DNA of 64,000 nucleotides, from positions 124,001 through 188,000 of the forward strand of contig NZ_JACHGY010000001.1 in assembly GCF_014207595.1 (NCBI RefSeq), written 5' to 3'. Below are positions 26,565 to 57,061 of this stretch, one piece after another. The notes beneath the pieces are model-generated. The model was not told the origin of the DNA. It did not search any database and saw only the letters and a program-made list of their open reading frames with translations. Source of the DNA: Algisphaera agarilytica. GTDB taxonomy: Bacteria > Planctomycetota > Phycisphaerae > Phycisphaerales > Phycisphaeraceae. The position numbers were made by a program, and so were the translations under genes. The first letter of the stretch is position 1. Every line of letters begins with the position of its first letter.

Positions 26565-26633
26565 GTAGGTCAGGCATGCTTGCCTGACATCGAGTGATAG
26601 AAACTCCGTGTCAGGCAGGCATGCCTGACCTAC
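26565..26633. repeat. Palindromic repeat unit (TAGGTCAGG family)
   Basis: Arms of about 24 bases at 26565-26588 and 26610-26633 are near-perfect inverted copies; both begin or end with GTAGGTCAGGCATGC. The element ends nine bases before the prfA stop and is nearly identical in the arms to the copy at 45518-45586, 19 kb away. It could form a hairpin after prfA. Confidence 0.88.
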
Positions 26634-45517: not shown

Positions 45518-45586
45518 GTAGGTCAGGCATGCTTGCCTGACGGGTGTCGTCGAAATATCCGTGTCAGGCAAGCATGCCTGACCTAC
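45518..45586. repeat. Palindromic repeat unit (TAGGTCAGG family)
   Basis: Arms at 45518-45541 and 45563-45586 are inverted copies of 24 bases with outer GTAGGTCAGGCATGC, separated by 21 bases. The arms match those at 26565-26633 almost exactly, while the loops differ. It lies between the DegT gene and the WXG100-like/FtsK operon and may insulate the two transcripts. Confidence 0.88.
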
Positions 45587-45713: not shown

Positions 45714-45983
45714 TTGGCCAAAGCCCATGTCGATCCGGATGACCTCGTGAAGTTCGCCAAGTCGCTGAACCAGTTCAATCGCACCATGCAAGAGATGACC
45801 GCCAGCCTCAAGGGGCAGATGCGGCGTCTCGAAACCACCTGGCAGGACCAGGAACAAGCCAAGTTCTCGCAGGAGTTTTTCGATGCCCTGCGTTTCATCG
45901 ACCGCTTTGTCGATACCAACGACCAGCACGCCCAGCTGCTGGTCAAGAAGGCCCGCCTGATTGAAGCCTACCTCGACGCCTGA
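45714..45983 (+). CDS. WXG100-like small helical protein (W-x-D variant), first gene of the T7SS-like operon
   Basis: 89 residues from the TTG at 45714. AAAGGTGG at 45701-45708 is well placed, and a GTG at 45681 would add 11 residues ahead of it. TACAAT at 45671-45676 is a possible -10. The protein is two amphipathic helices: DLVKFAKSLNQFNRTMQEMT and FFDALRFIDRFVDTNDQHAQ, joined around TTWQDQEQAKFSQEF, with W-x-D where WXG100 proteins have W-x-G. Size, helix-turn-helix hairpin and position beside an FtsK-type ATPase agree with an ESAT-6/WXG100 secretion substrate. It shares W-x-D-x4-KF-x-QEF with the protein at 46698-46910. Secretion is inference. Confidence 0.72.
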   Translation: MAKAHVDPDDLVKFAKSLNQFNRTMQEMTASLKGQMRRLETTWQDQEQAKFSQEFFDALRFIDRFVDTNDQHAQLLVKKARLIEAYLDA

Positions 45984-46071
45984 CGGCTACCCGTCGGGTA
46001 CCCGCCCTCCTCCTCCCCGCTTCCCGCCTCAACCGTTTCCCTCGCTCGCTCCGCCCAACCCAAGGATGTTC

Positions 46072-46701
46072 ATGGCCAAAGGTGCACGGGTCCAATCGAT
46101 CCAGCAACTCAGCGAGTTCCGAGCCTTCCTCGTGAAATTCGCCGAGGGCGTGCGCCACGGCACCAGCCTGGGCGAAAGCGAAGTGCAGAGCACCGCGCGT
46201 TGGCTCAAAGACGAACACCCCCAACGCCTCCTGACCGAGCGCCGCAAGGCCGAGCGTGCGTTGCAGAACGCGACGGATGACCTACGCCGTAAACGCCTCC
46301 AGCCCACCGCCACCGGCGACCCGCCCTCGACCGTCACCGAGCAAAAAGCCCTGGCCAAAGCCAAGGCCAAGATGCAGTGGCTCGAAGAAAAACTCTCCGC
46401 CACCCAGCGGTGGAACCGGCAGTTCGACAAGGAAGCCATCCAATTCCAGTCCGGCCTCCAGCCCGCCCAAAGCCTGCCCGAAGCGGTCATCCCCCGCGCC
46501 CTGGCCCGCCTCGAAGGCCACCTGATCGCCCTCGAAAACTACCTCGAAGCCCAGTCGTCCCAAGCCTCCCCATCCGCGCCCGGCGCACCTGAAACTGGCG
46601 GCGTGAGCCGTGTCGTTTCGGACGATACCGACAAAGCCCAAGACGACATATCCCCCGCCAACGAAGACGACACCGAGCCCCAAGCCGAGGAGGCCGTATG
46701 A
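46072..46701 (+). CDS. Helical protein with acidic tail, second gene of the T7SS-like operon
   Basis: 209 residues from the ATG at 46072; AAGGA lies 5 bases before it, and another ATG at 46066 is possible. Residues about 1-60 (SIQQLSEFRAFLVKFAEGVR) and 60-150 (KAERALQNATDDLRRKRLQP; ALAKAKAKMQWLEEKLSATQ) are long charged helices, probably coiled coil; the last 45 residues are Ser/Pro then Asp/Glu-rich and disordered. No signal peptide or membrane helix. Its ATGA overlap with the next gene indicates coupling. It may be a chaperone or adaptor for the small WXG100-like proteins; no family recognised. Confidence 0.75.
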   Translation: MAKGARVQSIQQLSEFRAFLVKFAEGVRHGTSLGESEVQSTARWLKDEHPQRLLTERRKAERALQNATDDLRRKRLQPTATGDPPSTVTEQKALAKAKAKMQWLEEKLSATQRWNRQFDKEAIQFQSGLQPAQSLPEAVIPRALARLEGHLIALENYLEAQSSQASPSAPGAPETGGVSRVVSDDTDKAQDDISPANEDDTEPQAEEAV

Positions 46702-46910
46702 GCCTGGGCGTCGGCGCTTCAACCCTGAACGATGCCCGCAAGGCGCTCAACGCCCGGTGGGACGAGCTGTGCCGATCGTGGGACGACGCCGCCGCCCGCA
46801 AGTTTGAGCAGGAGTTCATCCGCCCGATGGACCAGGACCTCAAGCAGGCCATCGACGCGATGATCCAGGCCCAACAGTCCGTCCAACGGGCCCGACAGGA
46901 GTGCACATGA
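46698..46910 (+). CDS. Second WXG100-like small protein (W-x-D variant)
   Basis: 70 residues, in 4-base overlaps with both neighbours (ATGA at 46698-46701 and at 46907-46910). Helix one, ASTLNDARKALNARWDELCR, runs into SWDDAAARKFEQEF and helix two, PMDQDLKQAIDAMIQAQQSV. W-x-D-x4-K-F-x-Q-E-F is the same signature as in the first small protein, though the rest differs. It is shorter than classical WXG100 proteins, lacking most of the first helix extension. Two such proteins in one operon could form a heterodimer, as EsxA/EsxB do. Confidence 0.72.
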   Translation: MSLGVGASTLNDARKALNARWDELCRSWDDAAARKFEQEFIRPMDQDLKQAIDAMIQAQQSVQRARQECT

Positions 46911-49900
46911 CCCAAGGCAACCCCTCCAGCAACGATCCCAAAGCCGCCACCTCCGCCGCGTCGCCCGTGCCGTTGTCGTCCATCGGCCGACGCCAGCTCG
47001 CGGCGCTCGCCGACCTGATCGACCTGTCCAACACCAGCGACCGAACCGAACGCCTGCTCGAGGCAGACGCCCAACAACGCCAGGACTTCATCACAAAGCG
47101 CTTCGAGCAGACCCAGGACCGTGTCTCGACCCGCCACCGCACGAACCGTCACCGCCTCGAAAAAGCCCACGCCAAGCAGGACGCCGCGATCCAGGCCGAC
47201 TACCAACAGCGTAAGGCCAAGCTCGACGCCGACGCGCAGAAGCTGCACAAAAAGCTGCAAGGCCAAACCCAGGACGCCCAGAAGAAAACCGAGTCCGAGC
47301 AGACTCACGAGAAGTGGGTCGCCGACAGCATGCTCGAGGGCCGGATCAACGAACTCAAAGCCGAGTACGAGCGCGACCTGGCTCAACTCGACTCGATGCA
47401 GCAGCAGGCCCAGGGCGTTGACGGACAGGCCGTGGACACGCTCAAGCGATACCGCCACCGCGACCTGCAATTGCCCGAGCACGTCTCGCCGAATGAAGAC
47501 GACCTTGCGGAAACCCCCGCCGACCCCGAGGCCGCGTTCAACGAACTGCTCGATCGGTACCCCTCGCAAGACGCCGAGCTGAAGTCGTCCCTACGGCAAC
47601 TCAAGAAACTCATGCTGCCGACGCTGTTCGTCAGCTTCGTGCCCTATCTGCTTTGGTTCATCCTGACCGCGGGCCTCACCGCCGGGGCGCTCTACCTCGG
47701 CCAGCAACTCGCCTGGGAGTGGACGCCCATCTACACCGGCATCGGTGCCTTCGTCGTCGGCGGAGCTATCGTCTGGGGACTGGGGCGCTTACTGTTCGGC
47801 ATGGGCACCAAGAAAGTCGCCAACGCGCTCGCCGGATACCGCCAACAACGCGAAGCGCATCTGGACTACCTCGACGAGCTCAGTGCAGCCGCAAAGGTTA
47901 AGCGTGACGTGCGCGCTGACGCCGCCCGCCAGGAACGCGACGCCGCCCACGAGAAAACCCACGCCAAGTTCGCCCCCTACTTCGAGAAGATCACCACCCG
48001 CAGCCAGCAGTCCATCGCCGAGCTCAACGAGAAGGTCCAAAGCAAAGCCACCCTGCTCGACGAACACCACCAGCAACAGACCGCCACGTTCAAGGCCGAG
48101 TCCGCCGCGGCGATCAAGCAGATCGACGACCGTCGCAACCGCCGACTCGACATCATCACCCGCCGCCGCGAACGCGACCAACTTGCCCTCGACACCGAGC
48201 ACGGCAGCAGCGCCGCGTCGCTCCAACAACGCTGGGAAGCGGGCCGTGACCGCCTGCTCCACAGCCTCGACGAGATGCGTCGGCTCGAGGAAACCTCCAA
48301 CCTCCCCTGGGCCGACCCCGAGTGGACCAACTGGGTCCCGCCCACCACGCCCGCCCCCGCCGTCCGCTTCGGCTCGATTACGCTCGACACCGAGAACCTC
48401 CTAGACGAGCAGGCCGCCGGGGGCCGGTTCGACCTGAACCTGCCGCCCTCACTTTCTGTGCCCGCCCTCCTCTCCGGGCCGGACCAGCGCTCGCTCTACC
48501 TCGGCACCACGCCCGAGCAGCGCCCCGCGGCGCTCGCGCTCATGCAATCGGTCATGCTCCGCCTGCTCACCACCATGCCGCCCGGGCAAGTGAAGTTCAC
48601 CCTCGTCGACCCCATCGGCCTGGGCGAATCCTTCGGCGGGTTCATGCACCTGGCCGACCACGAAGAATCCCTCGTCAACGGCCGGGTCTGGTCCGAGCCC
48701 GCGCACATCGACCGACGCCTCACCGACCTGACCGACCACATGGGGCAGATGATCCAGAAGTATCTGCGCAACGATTACGCCTCGATCGACGAATACAACG
48801 AGCAGGCCGGGGAGCTCGCCGAGCCGTACCGCTTCCTCGTCGTGGCCGACTACCCGCAGGGCTTCTCGACCGACGCCGCGGCCCGGCTCAACAGCCTCGC
48901 CGCCAGCGGCGCGCGATGCGGCGTCTTCGTCCTCGTGCTCCACGACCAACGCACCAACCCGCCCACCGGCGAGATCGACGACCTCCGCCGACACTGCACC
49001 GTCGCATCGTTCGATCAGGACACCGGCTGGCGTTGGCGGCACGCCGTCACCGAGCGGTTCCCCTTCTTCCCCGACACGCCGCCGAGCGAAGAACTCGTCA
49101 GCCAAATCGTCGGCAAGGTCGGCCGGGCCGCGATCGAAGCGGGCCGCGTCCAGGTCCCCTTCTCCACCATCACCCCCGCACCCGGCAGCGGCGACTTCTG
49201 GTCCCGCAGCGCCTCGGAAGACCTCGAAGTCCCCATCGGCCGCGCGGGCGCGACGCGCCTCCAATCCTTCCGCGTCGGGCGGGGCGTCGCGCAGCACGCG
49301 CTCGTTGCCGGTAAGACCGGATCGGGTAAGTCGTCGCTGCTGCACACGCTCATCACCAACCTCTGCCTCTGGTACCCCCCCGACCAGCTCGAGCTATACC
49401 TGATTGACTTCAAGAAGGGCGTCGAGTTCAAGCCCTACGTCAGCCACCGCCCGCCGCACCTCCGCGCCATCGCGATCGAGTCCGACCGCGAGTTCGGCCT
49501 GTCCATCCTCAAACGCCTGGACGCCATGCTCGACGAGCGCGGCGAACGCTTCCGTGAGACCGGCGTCGCCAACCTCGCCGGGTACCACAAGGCCGAGCCC
49601 GACAAGCCCATGCCCCGCGTCATGCTCATCGTCGACGAGTTCCAGGAGCTCTTCGGCCAGGACGACGCGATCAGCCAGGCTGCCACGCAACTGCTCGACC
49701 GTTTGGTGCGCCAGGGCCGGGCGTTCGGCATGCACGCCTTCCTCGGCTCGCAATCCCTCAGCGGCGCTGCCGGATTGCCTCGCGGCACGATGGGGCAGAT
49801 GGCCGTGCGCATCGCGCTGCAGTGCTCGGAGAACGACAGCCAGCTCATCCTCGGCGACGAAAACTCCGCCGCCCGCCTGCTCACCCGCCCCGGCGAAGCG

Positions 49901-50944
49901 ATCTACAACGACCAGAACGGCACCCTCGAAGCCAACAGCCTCTTCCAGGTCGCCTGGCTGCCCGACCACGAGCTGCGCGACAACCTGCGCAACATCACCG
50001 AACGTGCCGCCGAGCGCAGCGTCGAGTCCGAGGGCTGCTTCGTCTTCGAGGGCAACGCCCCGGCGAGCCTCGCCGACAACCAGCCGCTGAGCGAACTGCT
50101 CGCCCTGCCCGATTGGCCCAAGCCCGATGCCCGCGGCCTGCACGCCACCTCGGCCTACCTCGGCGAGCCCATCGCCATCGACGCCCCCACCGCCATCACC
50201 TTCCCCAAGCTCAACGGCGCCAACGCCCTGGTCCTCGGGCAAAACGCCGACAACACCCTCGGCCTGCTCTGCTCGTCCCTCCTCGGCCTCGCCGCGGCCC
50301 ACCATCCCGACGCCGCCCGCTTTGTCGTCTTCAACGGCTCAACCGAGCCCCAACACGACGAGCAGATCCGCCAGACCCTCGACACCCTGCCGCACGGCGT
50401 CGCCCAGGTGCCCTTCCGTGATGTCGACTCGACCCTCGCCGAGCTCCACGCCGAACTGCAGCGCCGCATCGAAGACGGCGGCACGGAGGCCCCCACCACC
50501 TTCATCGCCGTGTTCGGCCTCCAACGCTTCCGCCAGTTCCGCAAGTCCGACGACGGCTTCTCGTTCTCTTTGGACGATGACGCCGGTAGCTCCGCCAAGC
50601 CCGACGAGCAGTTGCTGGACCTATTACGCGACGGCCCGGTCGTGGGCATGCACCTGATCGTCGTCGCTGACCGCGCTGCGTCCATCGAACCGGTGTTCGA
50701 CCGCCGGGCCCTGCGCGAGTTCGACAACCGCGTGATGTTCCAGATGTCCGCCACCGACTCGGCCCAGATCATCGACAGTAGCGAAGCCAACGACCTCGGC
50801 CCCTACCGGGCACTGCTGTACCGTGAAGACCGCGGCACGATCACACGGTTCCGGCCTTACGGAATGCCGTCGGAAGATGATCTCAAGCGGTTTGAGCTTT
50901 CGCTTACCCGGCCGTATCGCGGCAATAAGGCATCGAATGCTTGA
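46907..50944 (+). CDS. FtsK/SpoIIIE-type membrane ATPase, EccC-like, with coiled coils
   Basis: 1345 residues. An N-terminal coiled coil (about 30-230) is followed by two transmembrane helices (about 237-259, LFVSFVPYLLWFILTAGLTA, and 266-294, IGAFVVGGAIVWGLGRLLFG), a second long coiled coil (about 300-460) and three ATPase-like modules. The first (about 530-720) and third (about 1085-1330) keep RecA-like strands but lack Walker A. The second has GKTGSGKSSLLHTL (about 801) and Walker B MLIVDEFQELF (about 908), plus an FtsK-type DRLVRQGRAFGMHAFLGSQS. This three-module plan resembles EccC of type VII secretion. No DNA-translocase gamma domain is seen. It is coupled to two WXG100-like genes. Confidence 0.85.
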   Translation: MTQGNPSSNDPKAATSAASPVPLSSIGRRQLAALADLIDLSNTSDRTERLLEADAQQRQDFITKRFEQTQDRVSTRHRTNRHRLEKAHAKQDAAIQADYQQRKAKLDADAQKLHKKLQGQTQDAQKKTESEQTHEKWVADSMLEGRINELKAEYERDLAQLDSMQQQAQGVDGQAVDTLKRYRHRDLQLPEHVSPNEDDLAETPADPEAAFNELLDRYPSQDAELKSSLRQLKKLMLPTLFVSFVPYLLWFILTAGLTAGALYLGQQLAWEWTPIYTGIGAFVVGGAIVWGLGRLLFGMGTKKVANALAGYRQQREAHLDYLDELSAAAKVKRDVRADAARQERDAAHEKTHAKFAPYFEKITTRSQQSIAELNEKVQSKATLLDEHHQQQTATFKAESAAAIKQIDDRRNRRLDIITRRRERDQLALDTEHGSSAASLQQRWEAGRDRLLHSLDEMRRLEETSNLPWADPEWTNWVPPTTPAPAVRFGSITLDTENLLDEQAAGGRFDLNLPPSLSVPALLSGPDQRSLYLGTTPEQRPAALALMQSVMLRLLTTMPPGQVKFTLVDPIGLGESFGGFMHLADHEESLVNGRVWSEPAHIDRRLTDLTDHMGQMIQKYLRNDYASIDEYNEQAGELAEPYRFLVVADYPQGFSTDAAARLNSLAASGARCGVFVLVLHDQRTNPPTGEIDDLRRHCTVASFDQDTGWRWRHAVTERFPFFPDTPPSEELVSQIVGKVGRAAIEAGRVQVPFSTITPAPGSGDFWSRSASEDLEVPIGRAGATRLQSFRVGRGVAQHALVAGKTGSGKSSLLHTLITNLCLWYPPDQLELYLIDFKKGVEFKPYVSHRPPHLRAIAIESDREFGLSILKRLDAMLDERGERFRETGVANLAGYHKAEPDKPMPRVMLIVDEFQELFGQDDAISQAATQLLDRLVRQGRAFGMHAFLGSQSLSGAAGLPRGTMGQMAVRIALQCSENDSQLILGDENSAARLLTRPGEAIYNDQNGTLEANSLFQVAWLPDHELRDNLRNITERAAERSVESEGCFVFEGNAPASLADNQPLSELLALPDWPKPDARGLHATSAYLGEPIAIDAPTAITFPKLNGANALVLGQNADNTLGLLCSSLLGLAAAHHPDAARFVVFNGSTEPQHDEQIRQTLDTLPHGVAQVPFRDVDSTLAELHAELQRRIEDGGTEAPTTFIAVFGLQRFRQFRKSDDGFSFSLDDDAGSSAKPDEQLLDLLRDGPVVGMHLIVVADRAASIEPVFDRRALREFDNRVMFQMSATDSAQIIDSSEANDLGPYRALLYREDRGTITRFRPYGMPSEDDLKRFELSLTRPYRGNKASNA

Positions 50945-50971: not shown

Positions 50972-51346
50972 CTACAAATCAGACTCTGCCATCAAGTCTG
51001 TCTTATCCTGTTCGAAGTGGACGTAGTAGCTCGTCCAACAGTCTGAAACCTCAGTTGCTACTTCAGCGCCACACTTACCGCACAGCTGATTAGGCATGCC
51101 TGCAGATGGACCACAGCAGCCCACCCACCTCTCTGATTCGGGGTGGTTGGTCAAGTTCAATCGATCATCCAGATGAATTAGAATTTGTCCCTCTAGATTT
51201 ACCATCCCATCATCTACGATCCAATATTTACCTTGCGGAATGACATTTTCGCCGTCTTTCCACTCGGGGTCGAAGTCGGATGAAACAAGCTCCAACCAAG
51301 TCGTCAAAGGATTACCACATAACGTGCATTTAACGCGGTGTTTCAT
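50972..51346 (-). CDS. Small zinc-ribbon-type protein of unknown function
   Basis: 124 residues from the ATG at 51346, with GGAGG 6 bases upstream. The N-terminus has CTLCGNP and a later region CCGPSAGMPNQLCGKCG, two or more CxxC-type pairs suited to one or two zinc sites. Between them is a beta-rich region (KYWIVDDGMVNLEGQILIHL). The gene is convergent with the FtsK-type gene (28 bases between stops) and has visibly lower G+C than its neighbours, suggesting later acquisition. It may be unrelated to the T7SS-like operon. Function unknown. Confidence 0.7.
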   Translation of the reverse strand: MKHRVKCTLCGNPLTTWLELVSSDFDPEWKDGENVIPQGKYWIVDDGMVNLEGQILIHLDDRLNLTNHPESERWVGCCGPSAGMPNQLCGKCGAEVATEVSDCWTSYYVHFEQDKTDLMAESDL

Positions 51347-51440
51347 TTGTAGCCTCCAGAATTTAAGACTCTCCGCCCACACGGCTCATTGGCAACTTGA
51401 ATGGCCTATACAAGCTTGAAAGCGTGTAGCGTAGAAACAG

Positions 51441-54672: not shown

Positions 54673-55812
54673 ATGCATGGAAGGAACGCCCCGCGTTACG
54701 CCTTGTCTGACGCCGCGCACAGCCCGCTGCTCGTGTTCTACGAGGTCACGCGGGCCTGCGATTTGGCTTGCCGCCACTGCCGCGCCCGGGCCATGCCCCA
54801 CGCCCACCCGCACGAGCTCTCGACCGCCGGTTCGCTGTCGCTTCTCGAAGACCTCGCCAACTTTCCGAAGCCGCCGATGCTCGTGCTGACGGGCGGCGAC
54901 CCGTTTGCGCGAGCCGACCTTTTCACGCTGATCGAGTATGCGGTGTCTTTGGGGCTGCACACCTCGCTCGCGCCGTCCGCCACGCCGCGGGTGAGCGGGC
55001 CGTTGCTGCGTGAAGCTCAACGGTGTGGCGTGCAACGGTTGTCGATCTCGATCGACTCGGCCGACGCGGATTGGCACGACCGGTTCCGCGGCGAGGCGGG
55101 CACGTTTAACGATGGGCTACGCATCCTGCGCGACTGCCAGGCGATGGGCCTGTCCACACAGGTCAACACCACGGTGATGCCGGGCAACCTGGATCAGCTC
55201 ACCGCGATCGCCGACCTGGTCGAATCGGTCGGTGCGGCGATGTGGTCGGTGTTCTTCCTTGTGCCGACCGGGCGGGCGTATCGGGAAGACCGACTTTCGG
55301 GCAACCAGACGGATGAGGTCTTCGATCTACTGTGGCGTCTGGCGAAGACCCGGCCGTTTGCGATCAAGACCACCGAAGCCCCGTTCTACCGCCGGTTTGT
55401 GAAACAACGGATGGGCGACCCGATGCGGCCGCAACCTGGCAAGGCCGACGGGCCACGACCGCCCGCCCGCTCGCCGCTGGGCATCAACGACGGCAAGGGC
55501 ATCTGCTTCATCAGCCATCGCGGCGAGGTGCAGCCGTCGGGCTTCCTGCCGTTGGTGGCCGGACGTTTCCCCGAGCAGTCCGTCGTGGATGTGTATCAGC
55601 ACCACCCGACCTTCGTCGCGCTGCGCGACCCCGAACAGCTCAAGGGCAAGTGCGGCCGATGCGGATACAAATCAATCTGCGGCGGATCGCGTGCCCGGGC
55701 CTATGCCGTGAGCCGCGACTACCTGGGTGAGGAACCCGACTGCCCGTACCAACCCGACCTTGATCCCGAAGCGACTCCCGCTTCGATCCCTTTGGAGATT
55801 CGTCATGTTTAG
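54673..55812 (+). CDS. Radical SAM/SPASM protein (TIGR04053-like)
   Basis: 379 residues. VFYEVTRACDLACRHCRARA holds the CxxxCxxC cluster (about residues 29-36). PPMLVLTGGDPFARADLFTL, SLAPSATPRVSG and RLSISIDSADADWHDRFRGE follow the TIGR04053 pattern. The C-terminal SPASM-type cysteines are in GKCGRCGYKSICGGSRARA (about 325-345) with a further Cys in EPDCPYQP. Such enzymes take part in heme-type or peptide modification. It overlaps the next radical SAM gene by 8 bases, so the pair works together, possibly in an alternative heme (Ahb) or heme-d1-type route. The pathway partners AhbA/B are absent here. Confidence 0.85.
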   Translation: MHGRNAPRYALSDAAHSPLLVFYEVTRACDLACRHCRARAMPHAHPHELSTAGSLSLLEDLANFPKPPMLVLTGGDPFARADLFTLIEYAVSLGLHTSLAPSATPRVSGPLLREAQRCGVQRLSISIDSADADWHDRFRGEAGTFNDGLRILRDCQAMGLSTQVNTTVMPGNLDQLTAIADLVESVGAAMWSVFFLVPTGRAYREDRLSGNQTDEVFDLLWRLAKTRPFAIKTTEAPFYRRFVKQRMGDPMRPQPGKADGPRPPARSPLGINDGKGICFISHRGEVQPSGFLPLVAGRFPEQSVVDVYQHHPTFVALRDPEQLKGKCGRCGYKSICGGSRARAYAVSRDYLGEEPDCPYQPDLDPEATPASIPLEIRHV

Positions 55813-57061
55813 TGTGAGCAACATCCTCTGCAACCATCAGGCCGGCAACGAAAAACTGCGCTACGGCCACCGCAAGGCCGACCGCGCCCCGGGCGACAAC
55901 GCGCCCCGGCCGGTCGTGGTCTGGGCGGTGACCCGGGCGTGCAACCTCAAGTGTGTCCACTGCTACGCCAACGCCGACGCCAGCGCCGCGCCCAACGAGC
56001 TGACCTACCGCGAGGGCTGCGAGCTGCTTGACCAACTCAAGGAGTTTGGTGCCCCGGCGGTCCTGTTCTCAGGCGGCGAACCCCTGGTCCGCGACGACAC
56101 GCTCGACCTCATGGCCTACGCCCGCCAACTCGGCCTGCCCTGCACGCTCTCGACCAACGGCCTGCTCATCGACAGCATCACCGCGGCCCGCCTCGCCGAA
56201 CTCGGCGTGAAATACGTCGGCATCTCGCTCGACGGCATCGGCAAAACCCACGACAAGCTCCGCGGGCAACGCGGCGCGTTCGAGAAAACCCTCAACGCCA
56301 TCCGCCGGTGCCAACGCCACGGCCTGAAGGTCGGCGTGCGCTTCACCGTCCACCGCTTCAACCTCGACCACCTCGACCAGATCTTCGAGCTCTGCGTCCG
56401 CGAGAACATCGGCCGCCTCTGCGTCTACCACCTCGCCTATGCGGGACGTGGTGGCAAGATGCAGCTCGCCGACCTGACCAAGGATCAGACCCGGCATGCG
56501 GTGGACCGCATCTTCGAACTGACCCAGCAGTTCCATGATCGCGGCACGCCTTTGGAGGTGCTGACCGTGGGCAACCACGCCGACGCGGCCTACGCCGTGA
56601 TGGCCCTGGAGCAGACCGACCCGGCCCGCGCTGCGGCCATCGCCAAGCGTCTCTCGGCCACGGGCGGCAACCGCTCGGGGGCCAACATCTGCTCGGTCAG
56701 CCCCGAGGGCGATGTGCACTACGACCAGTTCTCCTGGCACTACCCCGTGGGCAACGTCCGCGAACAGACCTTCCGCGAGATCTGGGGCGAGCAGCCGACC
56801 GACGTCCGACTCAATCAACTCCGCACCCGCCCCGAGGGCCTGCCCCAGCGCTGCAGCGATTGCCGGTTCCTGAAACTGTGCAACGGCAACCTCCGCACCC
56901 GGGCCGAGGCCGCCACCGGCGACTGGATGGGCGTCGACCCGTCGTGCTACCTGGATGAATACGAGATCGCCCACCGTGAAGTCCACTGCGGCGAGCTGCT
57001 CACGGCCAGCCGTTCGGGGCCCTCGATCGGAGCACGTTTCCAGGCGGATTGGGACGGCTGA
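55805..57061 (+). CDS. Radical SAM protein, AhbC/NirJ-like
   Basis: 418 residues from the ATG at 55805, with GGAG 8 bases upstream. MFSVSNILCNHQAGNEKLRY is the NirJ/AhbC type of start. The cluster motif CNLKCVHCYANADA is at about residues 45-52, with FSGGEPLVRDDTLDLM and VGISLDGIGKTHDKLRGQRG following. The C-terminal cluster cysteines are in ANICSVSPEGDVHYDQ, RCSDCRFLKLCNGN and DPSCYLDEYE. AhbC removes acetate side chains from didecarboxysiroheme in the alternative heme pathway; NirJ makes the d1 precursor. The neighbour overlaps, and gyrA follows. Confidence 0.87.
   Translation: MFSVSNILCNHQAGNEKLRYGHRKADRAPGDNAPRPVVVWAVTRACNLKCVHCYANADASAAPNELTYREGCELLDQLKEFGAPAVLFSGGEPLVRDDTLDLMAYARQLGLPCTLSTNGLLIDSITAARLAELGVKYVGISLDGIGKTHDKLRGQRGAFEKTLNAIRRCQRHGLKVGVRFTVHRFNLDHLDQIFELCVRENIGRLCVYHLAYAGRGGKMQLADLTKDQTRHAVDRIFELTQQFHDRGTPLEVLTVGNHADAAYAVMALEQTDPARAAAIAKRLSATGGNRSGANICSVSPEGDVHYDQFSWHYPVGNVREQTFREIWGEQPTDVRLNQLRTRPEGLPQRCSDCRFLKLCNGNLRTRAEAATGDWMGVDPSCYLDEYEIAHREVHCGELLTASRSGPSIGARFQADWDG

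What the first reader, a model, noticed from the sequence alone, without database searches (positions are those of the whole stretch)
45714..50944. Minimal, divergent type VII (ESX-like) secretion operon in a planctomycete
Four genes overlap by 4 bases or sit within 90 bases: a WXG100-like protein, a helical protein with an acidic tail, a second WXG100-like protein, and a membrane FtsK/SpoIIIE ATPase with three ATPase-like modules. Known ESX systems combine WXG100 substrates with EccC/EssC ATPases, but here EccB, EccD, EccE, mycosin, YukD and LXG toxins are all absent from the flanks. The organism is also diderm. This is a candidate undescribed reduced system. Family resemblance is seen in sequence; secretion is inferred.
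Basis: partly seen in the sequence, partly recalled or inferred. Interest (0 to 1): 0.88.

Follow-up and report, generated by a model that had tools for sequence, protein, structure and literature searches.

The report
Four-gene type VII-like secretion unit
Four neighbouring genes form a conserved, stripped-down relative of the type VII protein-export machines of Gram-positive bacteria, with one helical protein that looks like the cargo and in a distant relative carries a toxin; a one-line earlier mention of this kind exists, but its parts have hardly been studied.

Summary
Window 45714-50944 carries four tight, co-directional genes: A (89 aa, WXG100 above the Pfam cut-off), B (211 aa, two long helices plus an acidic tail), C (70 aa, short WXG100-like, below the cut-off) and D (membrane FtsK-like ATPase, three P-loop folds, only the middle one intact).

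The unit is conserved. D and B occur in exactly the same 54 of 294 genomes of the phylum. A, B and C lie upstream of D in 45 of 52 loci with enough flank. No other gene family was seen to travel with them. By sequence D is an EccC/EssC-type motor rather than a DNA translocase.

The kind is not new. A 2012 table footnote (PMC3482391) describes planctomycete 'solo WXG' proteins with a three-domain ATPase whose middle domain alone is active, and A's best solved match is H. pylori HP0062.

What looks new is the role of B. In one Chloroflexota relative a clear B domain ends in a nuclease toxin (Tox-GHH, E 2e-15); other Chloroflexota B ends vary. I read B as cargo, A and C as helical targeting partners, D as motor. 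Export is inferred, not shown. No toxin was recognised on planctomycete B proteins.

The parts
45714..45983 (+). A: WXG100 protein, 89 aa (TTG start), WxD at the hairpin turn; C-terminal YLxQR consensus of relatives is YLDA here
   Evidence: PF06013 33.4 bits > 27.3; 16 of 16 rows of A3 hit PF06013; profile hits H. pylori HP0062 3fx7 E 1.3e-12 and EsxA/EsxB structures
46066..46701 (+). B: long helical hairpin with acidic tail, 211 aa; proposed cargo (export domain)
   Evidence: AF2 model helices 12-78 and 90-166, pLDDT 85; same 54 of 294 genomes as D; relatives carry a C-terminal Tox-GHH or Imm33-like domain
46698..46910 (+). C: short WXG100-like protein, 70 aa, with C-terminal cysteine (C69)
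   Evidence: PF06013 20.8 bits, below cut-off; hhalign to A family 73% probability; W28, D30, A54, C69 invariant in 15 of 15
46901..50944 (+). D: membrane-anchored EccC/EssC-type FtsK/SpoIIIE ATPase, GTG start (or ATG 46907); two TM stretches, coiled-coil stalks, degenerate D0, intact D1, degenerate D2
   Evidence: PF01580 E 5.8e-33; TIGR03924 EccCa 120 bits against FtsK 15.6; Foldseek top 8 all EccC/EssC
49307..49330 (+). Walker A of the middle ATPase module (AGKTGSGK)
   Evidence: sequence, numbering, invariant columns
47606..47806 (+). two predicted transmembrane stretches of D (residues 234-265 and 274-300 from ATG 46907)
   Evidence: Kyte-Doolittle windows of 19 residues starting at 234-247 and 274-282

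Best explanation
The four genes form a compact type VII-like export module. D is the membrane motor: a two-TM, stalked protein with an inactive D0 module next to the membrane, one working ATPase (D1) and an inactive third module, equivalent to EccC/EssC but shorter. B is the cargo: a long helical hairpin that acts as the export domain, the counterpart of the LXG domain. A and C are small WXG100-type hairpins that pack with B into a helical bundle and present it to D, as Lap1/Lap2 do for LXG toxins; the conserved YLxQR end of A is a candidate export signal. ATP hydrolysis by D1 drives the bundle across the inner membrane. In relatives outside Planctomycetota B can carry a toxin; in the window B ends in an acidic tail and is exported unarmed, for an unknown purpose. 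Shown: gene content, order, co-occurrence, EccC kinship of D, WXG100 kinship of A, one clear toxin-ended B relative. Inferred: complex formation, export, direction, signal, outer-membrane step.
For: Co-occurrence: D and B in the same 54 of 294 genomes; in 17 of the 54 they are not within 10 kb of each other, in 7 of these on one contig at least 163 kb apart, yet both are kept. WXG100 in 18 of 61 genomes (own included), namely the 17 with full-length D plus one 78%-complete genome. Order: A, B and C upstream of D in 45 of 52 loci with flank; contiguous in 14 of the 17 genomes, one of the 14 across a contig break (and the window). Motor: 15 of 15 aligned D proteins hit the three T7SS ATPase models, 9 also FtsK; the window scores best with EccCa; best solved match T. 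curvata EccC. Cargo: L172 B (B-model E 1.2e-41) ends in Tox-GHH (E 2.3e-15), preceded by A and followed by a YbjN protein and C; L176 and L177 B share another C-terminal end (by eye); in the Helicobacter plasmid L135 the slot between A and D holds a WHH nuclease followed by a SUKH protein. Lap1/Lap2 precedent: passages of PMC9600955.
Against: No toxin domain was recognised on planctomycete B proteins: Pfam on the 16 rows of A2 (25 of 38 weak families shown) and on three long ones, the rest judged by length and tail. What the long ones carry is an Imm33-like domain (12 of 103 entries, repeats included), an odd thing to export. B shows no detectable relation to WXG100 or LXG by profile (8% probability; LXG model silent in the genome) and its model matches only generic coiled coils. 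In L134 and L135 the equivalence of the toxin-like gene with B rests on position and helical content: the B model gives 0.0015 and nothing. C is below the WXG100 cut-off in the window; 4 of 15 rows reach E 0.01. The VIA re-alignment of the D model does not separate EccC/EssC from FtsK and TcpA (all Z 21-23), so the assignment of D rests on sequence scores and Foldseek. Three of 12 genomes with D that were asked had no B by the same profile (G329, G334, G338). Nothing here shows secretion, and no outer-membrane component is known.
Confidence: 0.58

Rival explanations
1. The module is a membrane-anchored intracellular machine, not a secretion system: A, B and C regulate or assemble the ATPase for a stress or defence response, as the association of relatives with TerY-kinase-phosphatase clusters suggests.
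For: A Caballeronia plasmid relative sits between VWA, PP2C, kinase and AAA genes; a Rhodococcus plasmid relative beside TerD genes; a Chloroflexota D locus beside a PP2C-like gene (L068, read by eye); PMC4978471 links WxG and FtsK genes to the TerY-P triad. No outer-membrane partner is known.
Against: In the mostly planctomycete loci no such genes were seen to recur beside the unit; a toxin-ended B with a YbjN neighbour points to export.
Confidence: 0.22
2. An ordinary T7SS whose remaining components lie unlinked elsewhere in the genome.
For: A, B, C and D are themselves unlinked in some genomes.
Against: YukD, YukC and LXG models find nothing in the own genome; PF06013 finds only A. EccB, EccD, EccE and mycosin were not tested genome-wide.
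Confidence: 0.08
3. A degenerate polymorphic-toxin system that has lost its toxins and persists as a relic.
For: A Chloroflexota relative carries a toxin on B; on planctomycete B proteins none was recognised.
Against: Sequence conservation (D 39-51% identical to the window over 1121 residues with invariant catalytic residues) and identical occurrence of B and D across a phylum argue for present selection.
Confidence: 0.07
4. D is a DNA translocase and the small proteins are unrelated neighbours.
For: D contains an FtsK/SpoIIIE motor; by VIA its modules fit FtsK and TcpA as well as EccC/EssC.
Against: EccCa scores 120 bits against 15.6 for FtsK; the genome has another FtsK-like gene; co-occurrence with B and WXG100.
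Confidence: 0.02

Closest known systems
'Solo WXG' plus three-domain YueA-like ATPase of Zhang et al. 2012 (PMC3482391, Table 1 footnote 6; passages seen)
   Same: Planctomycetes named; WXG proteins without toxin; [quoted passage not shown]
   Different: In the passages seen no loci, no B or C and no gene order are given. The footnote calls them mobile; here the unit sits between ordinary chromosomal genes, and D relatives on plasmids (5 of 72,556 records at E 1e-20) belong to other phyla, where mobility is plausible
H. pylori HP0062/HP0066 'WXG100 secretion system' (PMC4978471, PMC3397514; passages seen)
   Same: WXG100 homologue of A (3fx7, E 1.3e-12) clustered with an FtsK-type ATPase in a diderm; called a minimal type VII set
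   Different: H. pylori genes were not fetched here; an HNH-superfamily nuclease is linked there; function also unproven
T7SSa/T7SSb and T7SSc-j with EccC/EssC (PMC11217815; passages seen)
   Same: Membrane EccC/EssC-type ATPase plus WXG100 protein
   Different: Three instead of four NTPase modules; no YukD or EssB/YukC found; the eight extra subtypes there are all Gram-positive
LXG toxin with Lap1/Lap2 targeting factors (PMC9600955; passages seen)
   Same: A long helical export domain with variable C-terminus and two small helical partners encoded beside it
   Different: No sequence kinship of B to LXG found; no toxin on B in the window

Membership tests
Type VII secretion system (broad sense) | Membrane-bound EccC/EssC-family ATPase | tested here: met
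   15 of 15 D proteins hit TIGR03924, TIGR03925 and TIGR03928; the window scores best with TIGR03924, though far below its equivalog cut-off (130.7 against 509 bits); Foldseek best 4nh0; two TM stretches
Type VII secretion system (broad sense) | WXG100-family small protein encoded with it | tested here: met
   A above PF06013 cut-off; 16 of 16 rows
Type VII secretion system (broad sense) | Demonstrated export of the WXG100 protein or effector | not testable with these tools
   needs culture work
T7SSb (Firmicutes) | YukC/EssB and YukD components | tested here: not met
   none in own genome at E 0.01, B. subtilis control rings
T7SSa (mycobacterial ESX) | EccB, EccD, EccE, mycosin | tested here: inconclusive
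   absent among 10 flanking proteins; not searched genome-wide
EccC/EssC ATPase, canonical four-module form | D0 plus three further ATPase modules | tested here: not met
   three modules in alignment and model; third weakly resembles EccC5 residues 1004-1059 (E 9e-4), which I take as ATPase2
Solo-WXG/three-domain ATPase variant (PMC3482391) | Three modules, only the middle one with intact Walker motifs | tested here: met
   alignments of 17 and 15 rows
LXG effector | LXG domain PF04740 | tested here: not met
   not among hits of window B; no hit in own genome
Polymorphic toxin (B family as a whole) | Conserved N-terminal trafficking domain with variable C-terminal toxin and adjacent immunity gene | tested here: inconclusive
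   toxin domain met in L172 (the YbjN gene as immunity is my guess), suggestive in L176 and L177; not met in the window
FtsK DNA translocase | Best match to FtsK models | tested here: not met
   PRK10263 15.6 bits against EccCa 120

The most novel reading that the evidence does not exclude
A separate branch of type VII secretion in diderm bacteria works with only four proteins: a three-module, single-engine ATPase, two WXG100 hairpins and a dedicated cargo whose hairpin (family B) is a new export domain. Ancestrally it delivered toxins, as relatives in Chloroflexota and proteobacterial plasmids still appear to do; in Planctomycetota it was fixed as an unarmed or Imm33-tailed exported protein with a housekeeping or signalling role, and some route across the outer membrane must exist that uses none of the known accessory parts.
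Probability: 0.4. Interest if true: 0.78.

Novelty: new variant of a known kind. Interest (0 to 1): 0.62.

Why it matters
If right, it defines the smallest conserved type VII-like unit and names its cargo, which makes the question 'what is the core of T7SS?' testable in a four-gene system. It extends T7SS biology to a diderm phylum and links WXG100/FtsK pairs of Helicobacter and plasmids, whose function has been open since HP0062 was solved, to toxin delivery through the B slot.

Tried and rejected
Considered and rejected: chance cluster (order and co-occurrence too strong); DNA translocase (sequence models favour EccC); recurrent accessory gene (among up to 97 loci no family besides A-D lies within four genes of the unit in more than 8; an uninterpreted minus-strand ORF recurs in 8, and the next, in 7 and 6, look by eye like sigma-70 and primase genes, i.e. 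shared local synteny); phage origin (116 of 50,697 phage records match the ATPase half of D at E 1e-10, none over 80% of it; of the 10 listed one unannotated 10-kb faecal record, MT836827.1, covers 65% at E 1e-54 and was not followed up; the other nine cover about a third).

Led nowhere: structure search of B (best Z 11, generic coiled coils; T7SS substrates are not listed, which excludes nothing); deciding whether the third module of D is EccC ATPase2 or ATPase3 (weak, leaning to ATPase2); profile kinship of B to A. Promoter-like sites: 0 found, 0.3 expected; terminator-like: 8 found, 5.4 expected. VIA gives the D0 region Z 14.4 to the EccC5 DUF domain but higher Z to EssC, TcpA and FtsK domains, so only the fold is shown. 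PADLOC hits of D (SspH 1e-29, mads_8 6e-26) cover the middle ATPase module only; I take them as shared FtsK kinship.

Literature: searches in an open-licence library. Listings were capped (20 of 101, 25 of 409 and 15 of 1,509), and subscription papers are missing; beyond the footnote and the Helicobacter papers I saw no account of a planctomycete T7SS in them. The Ter-system paper of Anantharaman et al. 2012 is not held and is cited only through PMC4978471.

Full report
Observation. Searches give four co-directional genes: A 45714-45983, B 46066-46701, C 46698-46910, D 46901(46907)-50944. A is a WXG100 protein above Pfam's cut-off; C matches the same family below the cut-off; B reaches no cut-off; D matches FtsK_SpoIIIE. 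NCBIfam ranks D first with EccCa (120 bits), then EccCb and EssC, with FtsK at 15.6 bits; all are below the equivalog cut-offs, so D is a divergent relative. Of 15 aligned D proteins 15 hit the three T7SS models and 9 also FtsK, with a weaker best E-value.

Anatomy of D. The alignments of 17 and 15 D proteins show long variable coiled coils, two hydrophobic stretches, then three conserved blocks. Only the middle block has an intact Walker A (AGKTGSGKS) and a Walker B (DEFQE), invariant in the 15 rows; in the window the first (..SLYLGTTPEQR..) and the third (..ALVLGQNADN..) lack the lysine. The AF2 model of residues 225-1345 (moderate confidence) has three alpha/beta domains. Foldseek's eight best matches are all EccC or EssC (E 3e-28 to 4e-12); TcpA and FtsK follow at about 1e-8. 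VIA re-alignment does not separate these families. By sequence the middle block matches EccC ATPase1 best. Compared with the four-module EccC/EssC described in PMC11217815 (passages), one module is missing; weak evidence makes the third block an ATPase2.

Anatomy of A, B, C. A: 16 of 16 rows hit PF06013; the turn reads WxD with invariant E47 and F51 instead of WXG; 67 of 73 A-type C-termini hold YL within the last eight residues, at least 54 of them as YLxQR (the window itself ends YLDA). Its profile hits H. pylori HP0062 (3fx7, 2gts) and EsxA/EsxB structures; HP0062 is described as ESAT-6-like with WRD in place of WXG and clustered with an FtsK/SpoIIIE protein (PMC3397514, passages). C: W28, D30, A54, C69 invariant in 15 of 15 near relatives; over a wider set, repeats included, 68 of 85 C-type ends hold a cysteine in the last ten residues, and the five Chloroflexota entries do not. 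B: two helices of 67 and 77 residues and an acidic tail.

Conservation. Among 61 genomes (own included) a full-length D occurs in 17 and a WXG100 in 18, the same 17 plus a 78%-complete one. Among these 17, A-B-C-D are contiguous in 14 (one across a contig break; in one, L040, D is in two ORFs); in one A-B-C sit on another contig than D, in one B-C-A lie 186 kb away, in one A, B and D lie in three places. Of these, 52 have D and more than 1.7 kb upstream; A, B and C are all there in 45 (40 in clean order, 5 with order labels blurred by over-long mechanical ORFs), B and C only in 2, none in 5. Some of the 80 are near-duplicates or from one assembly. Of the five without, three have B elsewhere in the genome and two do not. 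In 294 genomes of the phylum, chosen at 90% completeness or more, D (E 1e-60) is in 54 and B (E 1e-6) in 54, and the sets are identical. In 37 the two lie within 10 kb; in 17 they do not: 7 on one contig at least 163 kb apart, 10 on different contigs, one of these a contig break. So B is a constant partner of D even where the operon is broken.

Extent. Clustering the neighbours of up to 97 loci shows no other gene that travels with the unit; the most frequent neighbour family occurs in 8 loci. A co-directional gene within 60 bases lies upstream of A in 3 of 56 loci and downstream of D in 7 of 87. The unit is four genes. In the window the flanks are aminotransferases, a YchF GTPase, a sigma factor and radical SAM genes among others. 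Own genome: no YukD, YukC or LXG; one WXG100.

The role of B. Most B proteins end in a short tail. Twelve of 103 entries (some genes are in two sets) carry a C-terminal Imm33-like domain by a model seeded from seven of them; Pfam confirms two of three tested above cut-off (PF24719, 1.4e-14 and 8e-9; the third 9e-4). In Chloroflexota, where B occurs in 5 of 301 genomes, the ends vary: with the genome of D locus L114 added, six B proteins were read. L172, from that genome but on another contig than D, ends in Tox-GHH (E 2.3e-15) and is followed by a YbjN protein and C, with A in front. L176 and L177 share a ParB-like end (my reading; no Pfam hit), L178 has another end, L179 is glycine-rich and cut by the contig, L180 short. 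On plasmids, 5 of 72,556 records hold a relative of the ATPase half of D. In the Helicobacter plasmid the gene after A is a coiled-coil protein with a WHH nuclease end (E 1e-11), followed by SUKH and a small helical protein, then D. In Caballeronia A is followed by a 436-residue helical protein with a restriction-endonuclease-like end (my reading, no Pfam hit), a 113-aa gene, a 76-aa gene and D, inside a VWA-PP2C-kinase cluster. In these two the link to B is positional. A Rhodococcus plasmid has D followed by a protein with a weak B match (E 2e-5) and an end like that of L176, then a small gene and A. This resembles the arrangement of LXG toxins with Lap1/Lap2 targeting factors (PMC9600955, passages), which is why I take B as cargo and A and C as its partners.

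What speaks against. No toxin domain was recognised on planctomycete B proteins (Pfam on 19 of them; the others by length and tail), so delivery of toxins is not claimed for the window. Profile and structure searches do not tie B to known T7SS substrates. Export has not been measured for this branch in anything I read, and how it would pass an outer membrane is open.

Prior art. [quoted passage not shown] PMC4978471 (passages) calls WxG plus FtsK a minimal set of the type VII system and cites HP0062 and HP0066. The finding is therefore a well-resolved variant of a barely described kind. New here, as far as the searches named under Tried and rejected show: the exact four-gene unit, C, the identical occurrence of B and D, and B as a toxin-bearing slot.

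Noticed in passing
window 45523-45581 and 26570-26628: REP-like palindromes (TCAGGCAAGCATGCCTGA), here in pairs 41 bases apart, upstream of A and elsewhere; 36 exact 20-base copies in the genome, some paired, none of the reversed control.
   Followed up: partly
L053, L128, L150, L151, L152, L155, L159 and others: B proteins with a C-terminal Imm33-like domain in 12 of 103 entries, an immunity-type domain fused to a putative export domain.
   Followed up: partly
window 46698-46910 and family C: C-terminal cysteine of C: invariant in 15 of 15 near relatives, 68 of 85 entries overall, VR/VK ends in Chloroflexota. Purpose unknown.
   Followed up: partly
L134 (Caballeronia plasmid NZ_CP049321.1): WXG100-FtsK unit embedded in a VWA, CARF, PP2C, kinase and AAA cluster with a restriction-endonuclease-like gene (by eye) in the B slot.
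   Followed up: partly
L105/L176 (Anaerolineae MAG): Between C and D lie two coiled-coil genes of 856 and 478 aa; D is only 972 aa, as if the membrane and coiled-coil part were split off.
   Followed up: no
phage record MT836827.1, 3639-5333: Unannotated 10-kb faecal record with a relative of the ATPase half of D over 65% at E 1e-54.
   Followed up: no
L045 (G005): A PAS/HisKA/HATPase sensor kinase starts 2 bases after D in the genome where A, B and D are dispersed.
   Followed up: no
window 50972-51382, minus strand: 136-aa ORF with several cysteines downstream of D, no Pfam family.
   Followed up: no
window 54673-57061: Two adjacent radical SAM genes, the second with a SPASM domain.
   Followed up: no
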